The position numbers and the translations under genes were made by a program. The notes below the pieces were generated by a model. It saw only the letters and a list, made by a program, of their open reading frames with translations. It did no database searches and was not told the origin of the DNA. From Bacteroidales bacterium (GTDB lineage: Bacteria > Bacteroidota > Bacteroidia > Bacteroidales > UBA932), in assembly GCA_024689985.1 (NCBI GenBank), contig JAILCZ010000124.1, positions 1 through 38,032 of the forward strand: DNA of 38,032 bases, in the 5' to 3' direction. Positions 29,582-32,421 of the stretch are shown piece by piece; within the stretch, counting starts at the first letter, position 1, and each line of letters starts with the position of its first letter.

Positions 29582-29766
29582 TATTCTCGTCGTTCTCGAT
29601 CTGTGTCATTACCGTATTCTTTGCTCTTGAAAATCATATATATTATATTTGAATATCGCGCGATTTTACTAAAACCTAATTACCAATGTTAACCAACTCA
29701 CTATTAAAGACGGAGGTACCCTGGTTTCTTCCTGTCAGGAAGATTTGCTTTCCGAGTCTTCCCTAA

Positions 29767-29898
29767 ATGAAGCTGGCGCCGCTGTCATTTAGAGAAGCAT
29801 GGCGGGATTTTGAAAAATCATATCCTGAATACAATAATAATTTAAATGAGTTATCGAATAATCTCTCACCTATAGAAAGGCTAAAACACATTAAATAA
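29767..29898 (+). pseudogene. Small ORF copy 1 (middle + C-terminal part; 43 aa), probably N-truncated
   Basis: MKLAPLSFREAWRDFEKSYPEYNNNLNELSNNLSPIERLKHIK*; 'FREAW..FEKSY.EY' shared with copy 3 (31411-31587), 'LSPI(E/D)R(L/I)KH' shared with copy 2 (30658-30711). Confidence 0.6.
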
Positions 29899-29910
29899 AC
29901 AAATACCATT

Positions 29911-30651
29911 ATGAAACGTATACTTTTTATTTCAATAATGAGTCTTGTCAGTTTTTCTGTGTACTCACAAATCAAGGATTACTATTCAATATATAATAGT
30001 CGTGATACCCTCATTGTTGATGATAATAAATACATCGTATACTCCTTTCAAAACCCACCATATAGATCCATAGCATTAACTAATATCAATAATAGTATTC
30101 TGTACTATAGTGACTATAATATACGACGGAAAGATCCGAATTGTGTACAATATCCACGTCCTATAGATTTATACGTTAAACATGATTTATGTGAAAGAAT
30201 ACTCAAAAAAGTATTTGACGACGATGATTGCCAAAAATTAGCCGGATATTGGATCCGCATAAATATTTATGTTGACCAGACAGGAAAAGTCCGAGAGGTT
30301 AATTTCTACTTCGTTTACTCCAAAAGCGATCATGCCATCCTATCAATTCCACCAGAAAAATTTGTTGCAATTGAACGCATCTTGAAAGAAGAATTACAAA
30401 TTATTTTTAACGAAGATGAAGATCCTTCTGCAGAACGGAAGAATAAACGCAAAGAATTCTTGTCGCGTTATGACTTCGATTACTTGCCAACAGAATTTGT
30501 AATACGCTTCAATGGAAATCTCGAAATCTTAAATCACTGTGACATCATCGATGAGAAGGCAAAGGAAGTAGAAATAATGGCAAAAGATACCTCTAGTGCT
30601 TTATTCAAATCCCTACAGCAAATGCCAACAAAGAGAATAAAACTAAACTAA
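29911..30651 (+). CDS. Secreted hypothetical protein, island paralog A
   Basis: Signal peptide MKRILFISIMSLVSFSVYSQ then IKDYYS; shared core '(I)LSI(P/S)PEK(F/L)VAIE..LKE.L.I....DEDPS..R...RKEF...DFDY.PT...RFNG.LEI' with paralog C. Confidence 0.8.
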   Translation: MKRILFISIMSLVSFSVYSQIKDYYSIYNSRDTLIVDDNKYIVYSFQNPPYRSIALTNINNSILYYSDYNIRRKDPNCVQYPRPIDLYVKHDLCERILKKVFDDDDCQKLAGYWIRINIYVDQTGKVREVNFYFVYSKSDHAILSIPPEKFVAIERILKEELQIIFNEDEDPSAERKNKRKEFLSRYDFDYLPTEFVIRFNGNLEILNHCDIIDEKAKEVEIMAKDTSSALFKSLQQMPTKRIKLN

Positions 30652-30657
30652 GAAAAG

Positions 30658-30711
30658 ATGACTCCGGATTTAAGTCCAATTGACAGAATTAAACATCTAT
30701 ATGAAAAATAA
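30658..30711 (+). pseudogene. Small ORF copy 2 (C-terminal part only; 17 aa)
   Basis: MTPDLSPIDRIKHLYEK*; matches C-terminus of copy 1 (LSPIERLKHIK); ATG 6 nt after the stop of paralog A. Confidence 0.5.
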
Positions 30712-30723
30712 ATCGATTGCATT

Positions 30724-31410
30724 ATGAAAAAGACAATAGTTATATCACTTCTTTGCCTAATAGGGTTTTGTATTAGTGCACAGACAAAAGATTATTATTC
30801 AGGGCTGAGACAACCCGATACAATATTTGTCAACAATACCAATTACAGGACATCAAGATATCCAAGTTTTCCCAATTTTGATGAGTATTGTAGGGTATAT
30901 GTAACAAATACCAACAACTATTCCCTTATAAGACAACTATATAAAGCGAGGAATAAAGAAACAGGAACGCAAGTCGGGGGTTATTATCAAGAAAAACTTT
31001 ATAGATATAACCTGTTCACCAAAACAACTGCCGCAAAAGCACTTTTAGAGCAGGTATTCAGCAACGAAGAACGCCTGTCTTTAACTAGCCAGGATAACTT
31101 CTTACGACTGGAACTGTTTGTTGACAAATACGGCAATGTATGTGGTGTTGGATTCTGTTTTGAATATACCGATGATGACAAGACAATTCTTGCCATTTCT
31201 CCTGAAAAACTTGCAGCCATTGAAAGTCTGTTAATTGAAAAACTGAAAATAGACCTCAAAGATGATAAAGAGGAAGTGAGCTCCTCTGAGCGAAGAATGC
31301 AATTGAAAAAGTTCATCTACGAAAAATGTGATTTTGTTTATTTAAGAACGTACCTATACGTATCTTTCAATGGGAATGATATAGTAGTAACACGCGAACA
31401 TAAAAAGTAG
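30724..31410 (+). CDS. Secreted hypothetical protein, island paralog B (shorter C-terminus)
   Basis: Signal peptide MKKTIVISLLCLIGFCISAQ then TKDYYSG; core 'YTDDDKTILAISPEKLAAIESLLIEKLKIDLKDDKEEVSSSERRMQLKKF...DFVYLRTYLYVSFNG'. Confidence 0.8.
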   Translation: MKKTIVISLLCLIGFCISAQTKDYYSGLRQPDTIFVNNTNYRTSRYPSFPNFDEYCRVYVTNTNNYSLIRQLYKARNKETGTQVGGYYQEKLYRYNLFTKTTAAKALLEQVFSNEERLSLTSQDNFLRLELFVDKYGNVCGVGFCFEYTDDDKTILAISPEKLAAIESLLIEKLKIDLKDDKEEVSSSERRMQLKKFIYEKCDFVYLRTYLYVSFNGNDIVVTREHKK

Positions 31411-31587
31411 ATGAAAGAATCATTAAGACATGTATATATATGGCTTCTGTCAATCCTCGGATTGGCGGAAGCTGTATATATAAAGTTATTTCACACATGT
31501 CAGGAAAATAGAATATTTAATTATTTTAGAGAAGCATGGCAAGCATTTGAAAAATCATATCAAGAGTACAGGGCTAGTTTAGGTTAA
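31411..31587 (+). CDS. Small ORF copy 3 (N-terminal + middle; 58 aa), possible single-pass membrane protein
   Basis: MKESLRHVYIWLLSILGLAEAVYIKLFHTCQENRIFNYFREAWQAFEKSYQEYRASLG*; ATG immediately follows the stop of paralog B; below the 60-aa size of the supplied track; hydrophobic segment VYIWLLSILGLAEAVYI. Confidence 0.6.
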   Translation: MKESLRHVYIWLLSILGLAEAVYIKLFHTCQENRIFNYFREAWQAFEKSYQEYRASLG

Positions 31588-31612
31588 AACATATAAAGTA
31601 ACAGATAGTTTT

Positions 31613-32356
31613 ATGAAAAGGACACTTTTGATTTCACTATCGTGTCTTCTCTGTATTTCCTTGTATTCACAGACAAGGAATTACTATGCAGGCCATAAGG
31701 ATTGTGACACTCTCACTATTGAAAATAGTAAGTACATAGTACACTCATTCTCATACGAGTCATTCACAAAAGAACATAAGCACATCACATTTCGTAGCAT
31801 CAACAATAGAATACGAGACTACGACGATTTTAACATACGAAGAAAAAAAGCTGGTTTTGTGATGCTTCCATGTACCACAGACACATACGTTAATCACGAA
31901 GCAGGGCGAGTTCTTCTCAAAGAGGTCTTTGATGCTCAAGATTGTCAAAGACTATCTGGATTAAAAAAAGGGTTTAACATAAGAATAAAAATAAACCCCT
32001 CTGGTCATATCTGCGAGGTTGAATTCAACTTAGACTACACTGATGACGACAAAAGAATCCTTTCTATTTCACCCGAGAAACTTGTCGCGATTGAAAAAAG
32101 ACTGAAAGAACAATTACACATTGATTTAAACAACGATGAAGATCCTTCTGAAAAAAGAAGGATCTGGCGTAAAGAGTTCTTTGAGCACTTTGATTTCGAT
32201 TATATGCCAACTACCTTATTTGTTCGTTTCAATGGGGATCTCGAAATCATGAATAAATGCGACATCGATGATGAGAGAGAGCCAAAACTGAAAGAATTAT
32301 TTGAAGTATACAATTCAAATATTCCACTCCATCTTTTGGACGATTTATTCTTCTAA
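31613..32356 (+). CDS. Secreted hypothetical protein, island paralog C
   Basis: Signal peptide MKRTLLISLSCLLCISLYSQ then TRNYYAG; aligns through to the C-terminal region with paralog A (SKYIVHSF / NKYIVYSF; FNIRRKKAG / YNIRRKDPN; NNDEDPSEKRRIWRKEFF / NEDEDPSAERKNKRKEFL; MNKCDIDDE / LNHCDIIDE). Confidence 0.8.
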   Translation: MKRTLLISLSCLLCISLYSQTRNYYAGHKDCDTLTIENSKYIVHSFSYESFTKEHKHITFRSINNRIRDYDDFNIRRKKAGFVMLPCTTDTYVNHEAGRVLLKEVFDAQDCQRLSGLKKGFNIRIKINPSGHICEVEFNLDYTDDDKRILSISPEKLVAIEKRLKEQLHIDLNNDEDPSEKRRIWRKEFFEHFDFDYMPTTLFVRFNGDLEIMNKCDIDDEREPKLKELFEVYNSNIPLHLLDDLFF

Positions 32357-32364
32357 GACGAGAT

Positions 32365-32421
32365 ATGAAAGAATCAATAAGCTATGTATGTGCTGCTTTT
32401 GAGGTTCAATATACTCTATGA
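32365..32421 (+). pseudogene. Small ORF copy 4 (N-terminal remnant; 18 aa)
   Basis: MKESISYVCAAFEVQYTL*; 'atgaaagaatcaataagctatgta' resembles 'atgaaagaatcattaagacatgta' of copy 3; ATG 8 nt after the stop of paralog C. Confidence 0.45.

What the first reader, a model, noticed from the sequence alone, without database searches (positions are those of the whole stretch)
29767..32421. Tandem cassette of three secreted paralogs alternating with decaying copies of one small ORF
Seen: ORFs at 29911-30651, 30724-31410 and 31613-32356 are paralogs sharing a signal peptide, a '(K/R)(D/N)YY' mature start and a C-terminal core (LxISPEKLxAIE..L.E.L.IDL..DEDPSE.R...RKEF...DFDY.PT...VRFNG). After each stop, within 0-8 nt, comes a start codon of a small ORF (30658, 31411, 32365); a fourth small ORF precedes the first (29767). 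These line up as pieces of one small gene: copy 3 has N-terminus + middle (MKESLRHVYIWLLSILGL...FREAWQAFEKSYQEY), copy 1 middle + C-terminus (FREAWRDFEKSYPEY...LSPIERLKHIK), copy 2 only the C-terminus (LSPIDRIKHLYEK), copy 4 only the N-terminus (MKESISYV). Inference: an amplified two-gene module (secreted protein + small possible membrane protein) whose small partner has been truncated differently in each copy. I recognise no described family, and function is unknown.
Basis: partly seen in the sequence, partly recalled or inferred. Interest (0 to 1): 0.8.

Follow-up and report, generated by a model that had tools for sequence, protein, structure and literature searches.

The report
Orphan immunity array with toxin tails
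A Bacteroidales bacterium seems to have kept three divergent 'antidote' genes after losing the toxin genes they came with, and short stumps of the toxins' tail ends still sit in front of each antidote, showing how such antidote collections can arise.

Summary
The three secreted paralogs are real, on foreign low-GC DNA (GC3 0.31-0.36; flanking genes 0.54-0.69). They are divergent relatives of DUF5043 (Pfam PF16446, function unassigned): a profile built without them finds them at E 1e-20 to 5e-24, and the AlphaFold model of copy C matches only the solved DUF5043 protein 4QE0 (Foldseek E 3e-7). In at least eight independent Bacteroidales loci a DUF5043-like gene directly follows (gap -11 to +18 nt) a secreted protein ending in a gluzincin-like (H/E)ExxH...ExEA domain: the layout of toxin plus immunity gene.

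Upstream pieces end 11-12 nt before each DUF5043-like start and share (R/K)(L/I)KH(I/L); their nearest match is the tail of one such toxin (SHLDRIKHIK). Downstream pieces (25 nt after B and C) run into a long hairpin; origin unknown. In a sister-species pair 97% identical at this module, one toxin gene lost 565 nt including the peptidase domain, leaving a short tail before a duplicated DUF5043-like gene: the window's layout in the making.

Best reading: an orphan polyimmunity array formed by toxin-domain deletion. Immunity activity is inferred, not shown.

The parts
29788..29898 (+).
   Evidence: Matches spacer 3 (0/1000 shuffles) and the L069 toxin C-terminus; stop-to-ATG gap 12 nt
29911..30651 (+). 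A: secreted DUF5043-like protein, 246 aa
   Evidence: Profile without window rows E 5e-24; Pfam 18 bits, below cut-off
30658..30711 (+). Spacer 2: toxin-tail remnant ...LSPIDRIKHLYEK*, 12 nt before B
30724..31410 (+). B: secreted DUF5043-like protein, 228 aa
   Evidence: Profile without window rows E 3e-20
31411..31435 (+).
   Evidence: 22/25 identical to 32365-32389 (88%)
31434..31481 (+).
   Evidence: -36.1 kcal/mol, z -7.3 for 31405-31500; terminator-like
31525..31601 (+). Spacer 3: toxin-tail remnant FREAWQAFEKSYQEY, then frameshift, then RLKHIK*, 11 nt before C
31613..32356 (+). C: secreted DUF5043-like protein, 247 aa
   Evidence: Profile without window rows E 1e-20; AF2 model matches 4QE0
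32365..32389 (+). Spacer 4: 25-nt downstream-type element after C
   Evidence: 0/1000 shuffles vs spacer 3

Best explanation
The locus is an orphan immunity ('polyimmunity') array. The ancestral unit was a secreted lipoprotein with a C-terminal gluzincin-like metallopeptidase toxin domain, followed within about 15 nt by its immunity gene, a Sec-secreted DUF5043-like protein. Three related units were acquired or duplicated here on foreign DNA. In each, the toxin gene was deleted except for its last 15-35 codons, while the immunity gene was kept. The three divergent proteins are proposed to sit in the periplasm and bind variants of the peptidase toxin delivered by neighbours. SHOWN: DUF5043 relationship, tandem array, atypical composition, adjacency of toxin-like gene and DUF5043-like gene in other genomes, and deletion of the peptidase domain leaving a tail in a sister species. 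STRONGLY INDICATED: the window's tails are homologous to a toxin tail. INFERRED: toxicity, inhibition by the DUF5043-like protein, periplasmic site of action, protective benefit.
For: (1) DUF5043 relationship: a profile without window sequences finds A, B and C at E 5e-24, 3e-20 and 1e-20; profile A4 (window rows included) hits 4QE0 at E 2.4e-30; fold match. (2) DUF5043-like genes directly follow a secreted protein with C-terminal (H/E)ExxH...ExEA in L013, L016, L063, L064, L065, L068/L076, L070/L078 and L083, at gaps -11 to +18 nt; L082 is a near-copy of L070. The domain profile reaches seven further proteins, one of them Rhs-like (L071). (3) Effector-domain model (pTM 0.80): nearly all top 21 PDB neighbours are gluzincins (M61, LTA4 hydrolase, thermolysin-like), with weak E-values of 0.07 and up. 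(4) Direct precedent: G116 vs G142, about 97% identical; 565 nt missing between 9-nt repeats GAGCGACGA, which removes the peptidase domain and leaves DGRNLDYILKCYNQFYD* before a duplicated DUF5043-like gene. (5) [DE]R[LI]KH[IL] occurs in 1.28 M six-frame residues of fetched loci only in the window spacers and in the L069 toxin tail; (R/K)(L/I)KH(I/L) occurs three times in the window, each tail ending 11-12 nt before a DUF5043-like ATG. (6) The orphan DUF5043 gene of G099 sits at the nagB site where G085 carries the complete module. (7) Array GC 34% vs 50-52% in the flanks.
Against: No complete toxin of the window's own subtype was found; the tail link rests on a short motif shared with one toxin-like protein (L069), whose own downstream gene is a different secreted protein. 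A general effector profile does not detect the tails, and for spacer 1 as a whole 9/500 shuffles score as high. Most effector domains have EExxH instead of HExxH, so catalysis is uncertain. Several DUF5043-like genes have no zincin-type gene directly upstream (L012, L014, L015, L066, L154, L155), and in L014 a different, cysteine-peptidase-like protein lies two genes upstream, so the pairing is not exclusive. No function of any family member is known to me or found here.
Confidence: 0.72

Rival explanations
1. The DUF5043-like proteins are not immunity proteins but accessory partners (chaperone, activator, anchoring or substrate-capture protein) of the peptidase-domain lipoprotein, part of the same operon as the Wzy_C-like gene; the array is a redundant relic.
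For: Same gene order would result; some DUF5043-like genes sit next to other kinds of proteins (L014, L015) and a Wzy_C/TPR gene often follows (L016, L063-L065, L070/L082, L155).
Against: Retention and duplication after loss of the peptidase domain (G116, G099, window) make little sense for an accessory of a lost partner, but are expected for immunity.
Confidence: 0.17
2. One reading: an amplified pair of secreted protein and a small, possibly membrane, protein gene that decays differently in each copy.
For: Spacer 3 is an open frame of 58 codons joining both types of piece.
Against: No intact relative in 400 and 200 congeneric genomes; the N-terminal piece is mostly a hairpin and joins the rest only in spacer 3; the C-terminal piece matches a large protein's tail.
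Confidence: 0.06
3. Plain tandem duplication of one secreted-protein gene of metabolic or adhesive function, the spacers being duplicated upstream sequence without any toxin history.
For: A 44-nt block around each start codon is repeated; tandem pairs without a nearby effector exist (L066).
Against: Spacer peptide similarity exceeds DNA similarity and ends at stop codons 11-12 nt before the ATGs, as in intact toxin/immunity loci; synonymous differences only in RLKHIK* between spacers 1 and 3; L069 tail match.
Confidence: 0.05

Closest known systems
DUF5043 (Pfam PF16446; structure 4QE0, BACUNI_01052 of Bacteroides uniformis)
   Same: Same fold (Foldseek E 3e-7) and statistically clear homology (profile E 2.4e-30 to 4QE0).
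   Different: Window proteins score below Pfam's cut-off (18 bits or none, against 25), are longer (228-247 aa) and carry extra C-terminal elements. No paper held mentions DUF5043; BACUNI_01052 appears in one paper, on structure-prediction testing.
Homogeneous polyimmunity loci of polymorphic toxin systems (Zhang et al. 2012, PMC3482391)
   Same: Tandem, co-oriented paralogs of one predicted immunity family with small gaps and no complete toxin.
   Different: That paper states such loci are never interrupted by toxin genes or cassettes; here each unit is preceded by a toxin-tail remnant. No recombinase found among the neighbours tested.
Vibrio cholerae T6SS orphan immunity arrays formed by sequential effector displacement (Kirchberger et al. 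2017, PMC5361080)
   Same: Immunity genes retained after the ancestral effector or effector domain is lost; 3' effector ends can be shifted back with them.
   Different: Different phylum and toxin/immunity families, no T6SS cluster seen next to the array; the observed precedent is a deletion between short direct repeats, not displacement by an incoming module.
Bacteroidales rAID arrays (PMC12247911)
   Same: Bacteroidales, arrays of co-oriented orphan immunity genes.
   Different: No tyrosine recombinase among the neighbours tested; intergenic similarity here looks like toxin debris.
Tox-MPTase1-5 and other zincin-like toxin domains of polymorphic toxins (PMC3482391)
   Same: C-terminal HExxH-type domain, in one relative at the end of an Rhs-like protein (L071).
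   Different: No Pfam or NCBIfam toxin family is matched by the effector domain; most members have EExxH; lipoprotein carrier and adjacent DUF5043. The paper's table lists no immunity family for Tox-MPTase1-5.

Membership tests
DUF5043 (PF16446) | Pfam gathering score of 25 bits | tested here: not met
   A 18 bits, B and C no hit. Hence described as divergent relatives, not curated members.
DUF5043 (PF16446) | Homology to accepted members and shared fold | tested here: met
   Leave-out profiles E 3e-13 to 5e-24; 4QE0 by profile and fold; relatives L062 and L065 score 71-72 bits in Pfam
Homogeneous polyimmunity locus | Tandem co-oriented paralogous predicted immunity genes with short intergenic distances | tested here: met
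   Three genes, gaps 72 and 202 nt
Homogeneous polyimmunity locus | Not interrupted by toxin genes or cassettes | tested here: not met
   Toxin-tail remnants 11-12 nt before each gene
Homogeneous polyimmunity locus | Members neutralise toxins | not testable with these tools
   Inferred from adjacency and retention only
rAID | Associated tyrosine recombinase | tested here: not met
   Neighbours between 21.9 and 37.7 kb are housekeeping, sugar kinase, transporter, regulator and efflux genes; the rest of the window was not scanned for recombinases
rAID | Conserved intergenic motif | tested here: inconclusive
   A 44-nt block recurs in the window, but the published motif was not compared
Polymorphic toxin system (for the related complete loci) | Secretion signal plus variable C-terminal toxin domain followed by immunity gene | tested here: met
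   Lipobox-like N-termini, homologous N-terminal halves and divergent C-terminal domains in L068, L070, L083 and L065; toxicity itself untested
HExxH gluzincin peptidase (effector domain) | HExxH plus downstream glutamate on a zincin fold | tested here: inconclusive
   HExxH only in L065 and L071, EExxH elsewhere; Foldseek neighbours are mostly gluzincins but E >= 0.07

The most novel reading that the evidence does not exclude
DUF5043 is a family of exported immunity proteins against a so far undescribed class of Bacteroidota lipoprotein toxins with (H/E)ExxH...ExEA gluzincin-like domains, and polyimmunity arrays of this family form by in-place deletion of the toxin domain, leaving tail stumps that record how many toxin units were lost.
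Probability: 0.6. Interest if true: 0.65.

Novelty: new variant of a known kind. Interest (0 to 1): 0.55.

Why it matters
It gives a testable role to DUF5043, a family with a solved structure and no described function in the papers held. It names a predicted peptidase-toxin class as its partner. It also catches the origin of a polyimmunity array mid-way: one sister species has toxin plus immunity gene, the other has toxin tail plus duplicated immunity gene, and the window has three such units. How orphan immunity arrays arise in Bacteroidales becomes directly testable with these loci.

Tried and rejected
Small ORF as a gene family: searched with the 58-aa and 43-aa copies over 400 and 200 congeneric genomes; the hits inspected were SusC-like, PotC-type permease and other unrelated sequences. 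Spacer-3 'N-terminus' as the HExxH helix of the toxin: not supported (score 31 against shuffle mean 28.9, 145/500 as high). Spacer-3 'N-terminus' as the start of the Wzy_C gene that follows the module elsewhere: L155 alignment score 27, 445/2000 shuffles as high; dropped. Its similarity to PotC-type N-termini comes from loci fetched with that very query and is membrane-helix low complexity. Generic effector HMM against window frames: no detection of the tails. Relatives of C in plasmids and viral contigs and of A in phages: none; plasmids also none for the L065 effector. PADLOC: no hit. Rfam: none. tRNA in the window: none. Synteny: the genes after DUF1015 differ among relatives, so no informative empty site. 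First scan of genome contigs with C: no relative.

Full report
WHAT IS THERE. The three ORFs are as described and are paralogs: C vs A 47% identity, E 2.6e-58; C vs B 35%, E 4.2e-31. They lie on an AT-rich block (GC 34%, GC3 0.31-0.36) between genes of GC3 0.54-0.69. The block is flanked by pyrB/serC/serA-like and DUF1015 genes on one side and ROK kinase, MFS transporter and AraC-type regulator genes on the other, with a terminator-like site after DUF1015. There is no tRNA in the window and no recombinase among the neighbours tested. Atypical composition and patchy distribution point to horizontal acquisition (inference).

FAMILY OF THE SECRETED PROTEINS. Pfam gives only a sub-threshold DUF5043 hit for A (18 bits, cut-off 25). 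A profile of A, B, C and first relatives found more relatives in Bacteroidales, including six copies in one genome (G713) with three in tandem; two of these tested in Pfam score 71-72 bits as DUF5043. A profile built only from relatives outside the window finds A, B and C at E 5e-24, 3e-20 and 1e-20. The AlphaFold2 model of C (pLDDT 84.9, pTM 0.81) has one convincing PDB match, 4QE0, the DUF5043 protein BACUNI_01052 (Foldseek E 3.3e-7, probability 1.00), which profile A4 (window rows included) also finds by sequence (E 2.4e-30). So A-C are divergent relatives of DUF5043. The papers held contain no mention of DUF5043, and BACUNI_01052 appears in one structure-prediction paper.

WHAT PRECEDES DUF5043 ELSEWHERE. 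In L013, L016, L063, L064, L065, L068/L076, L070/L078 and L083, the gene immediately upstream of the DUF5043-like gene encodes a secreted protein (a lipoprotein where its start is held) whose C-terminal domain carries EExxH or HExxH and then ExEA; the gap to the DUF5043-like start is -11 to +18 nt. These domains are homologous: profile A2 (L013, L016, L063-L065) finds L068 at E 1.4e-11, L083 at 6e-9, L086 at 5e-7, L069 at 2e-6, L070 at 1e-4, L071 at 3e-4 and, weakly, L084 at 0.002. The two sub-alignments A2 and A3, which share one sequence (L013), align with HHalign probability 99.8%. Invariant are E and H of ExxH and E, E, A of ExEA. The AF2 model of the L069 domain (pTM 0.80, pLDDT 77) has as top PDB neighbours almost only gluzincin peptidases: M61, LTA4 hydrolase, thermolysin-like neutral protease, M1 aminopeptidases. 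The E-values are weak, 0.07 upwards, so this is a fold-class indication only. L071 carries the domain at the end of an Rhs-like protein, and the N-terminal halves of L068, L070, L083 and L065 are related to each other while their C-terminal domains diverge, as in polymorphic toxins. The pairing predicts that the DUF5043-like protein is the immunity protein; this is inference from gene order.

WHAT THE SMALL ORFS ARE. (a) Upstream-type pieces. (R/K)(L/I)KH(I/L) occurs exactly three times in the six-frame window, at these places, and RLKHIK* appears in 0 of 20,000 shuffles of spacer 3. Between spacers 1 and 3, RLKHIK* differs by synonymous changes only (sequence inspection). Among 1.28 million six-frame residues of all fetched loci, [DE]R[LI]KH[IL] otherwise occurs only in SNMSHLDRIKHIKKLLKK*, the C-terminus of the zincin-domain lipoprotein L069/L080 of the same genus. 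Local-alignment scores against that tail are 44 (spacer 1) and 37 (spacer 2), against a maximum of 40 for 9871 C-termini outside the window, one of which exceeds 37; 0/500 shuffles of spacer 2 and 9/500 of spacer 1 reach the observed score. The motif was noticed after looking at about a dozen tails, so these numbers are somewhat optimistic. (b) Downstream-type pieces. A 25-nt element follows B directly and C after 8 nt. In spacer 3 it runs into a 22-bp hairpin (31434-31481; z -7.3). Its origin is unexplained.

THE PROCESS CAUGHT ELSEWHERE. Two congeneric genomes share the same module next to the same rsmE-like gene at about 97% identity. G142 has the complete 532-aa effector followed by one DUF5043-like gene. 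In G116, 565 nt are missing between two copies of GAGCGACGA; this removes the peptidase domain and leaves DGRNLDYILKCYNQFYD* in front of the DUF5043-like gene, which is present twice in tandem. This is the window's arrangement (tail remnant, immunity gene, immunity gene) in a recent form. Likewise G099 has a lone DUF5043 gene between two nagB-like genes where G085 carries effector, DUF5043-like gene, Wzy_C/TPR gene and a transglutaminase-like lipoprotein gene. Other orphans are in G074, G131 and the G927 pair.

MECHANISM, WITH STATUS OF EACH STEP. Toxin lipoprotein exported (signal sequence: seen); peptidase domain reaches a neighbour and attacks an exported or envelope target (inferred); DUF5043-like protein, exported by its Sec signal, binds and blocks it (inferred from adjacency, retention and duplication); toxin gene deleted while immunity gene kept (shown in G116, indicated in the window); three diverged copies broaden protection (inferred). 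Confidence 0.72 in the array reading as a whole.

COMPARISON. It works like the homogeneous polyimmunity loci of Zhang et al. 2012 (PMC3482391) and like the orphan immunity arrays of Vibrio cholerae (PMC5361080), but Zhang et al. state that polyimmunity loci are never interrupted by toxin cassettes, whereas here toxin tails remain. It is not an rAID array by the recombinase criterion, as far as neighbours were tested (PMC12247911). Novelty: a new variant of a known kind, with a predicted function for a DUF and a predicted toxin class.

LIMITS. The genome is an 84%-complete assembly, so a matching toxin could be missing. Genome searches covered a sample of the genus and order, not all. No close relative of the window subtype of toxin was found. 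Activity is untested.

Noticed in passing
L082:2218-5383 (also L016, L063-L065, L155 in part): The effector/DUF5043 pair is often followed by an O-antigen-ligase-like (Wzy_C) TPR protein and, in L082/L078, a transglutaminase-like lipoprotein; a recurring operon whose role is unknown.
   Followed up: partly
L014:7812-10189: In G227 a DUF5043 gene lies two genes behind a secreted protein with a cysteine-peptidase-like C-terminus (DHWVVVIGYG), hinting that DUF5043 may accompany other toxin kinds.
   Followed up: no
L080:2906-5541: The L069/L080 zincin effector, the closest match to the window tails, is followed by a different 376-aa secreted protein with no Pfam hit: a possible second immunity family.
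   Followed up: no
window 31434-31481: 22-bp near-perfect hairpin with 4-nt loop between B and C, no Rfam match; terminator-like or a small palindromic element.
   Followed up: partly
window 29700-29791: Open stretch upstream of and overlapping spacer 1 in another frame, ending TIKDGGTLVSSCQEDLLSESSLNEAGAAVI*, possibly the end of another lost gene.
   Followed up: no
L012:7278-7904 vs L078: Orphan DUF5043 in G099 at the same nagB site that holds the full module in G085: a natural presence/absence pair for toxin loss.
   Followed up: partly
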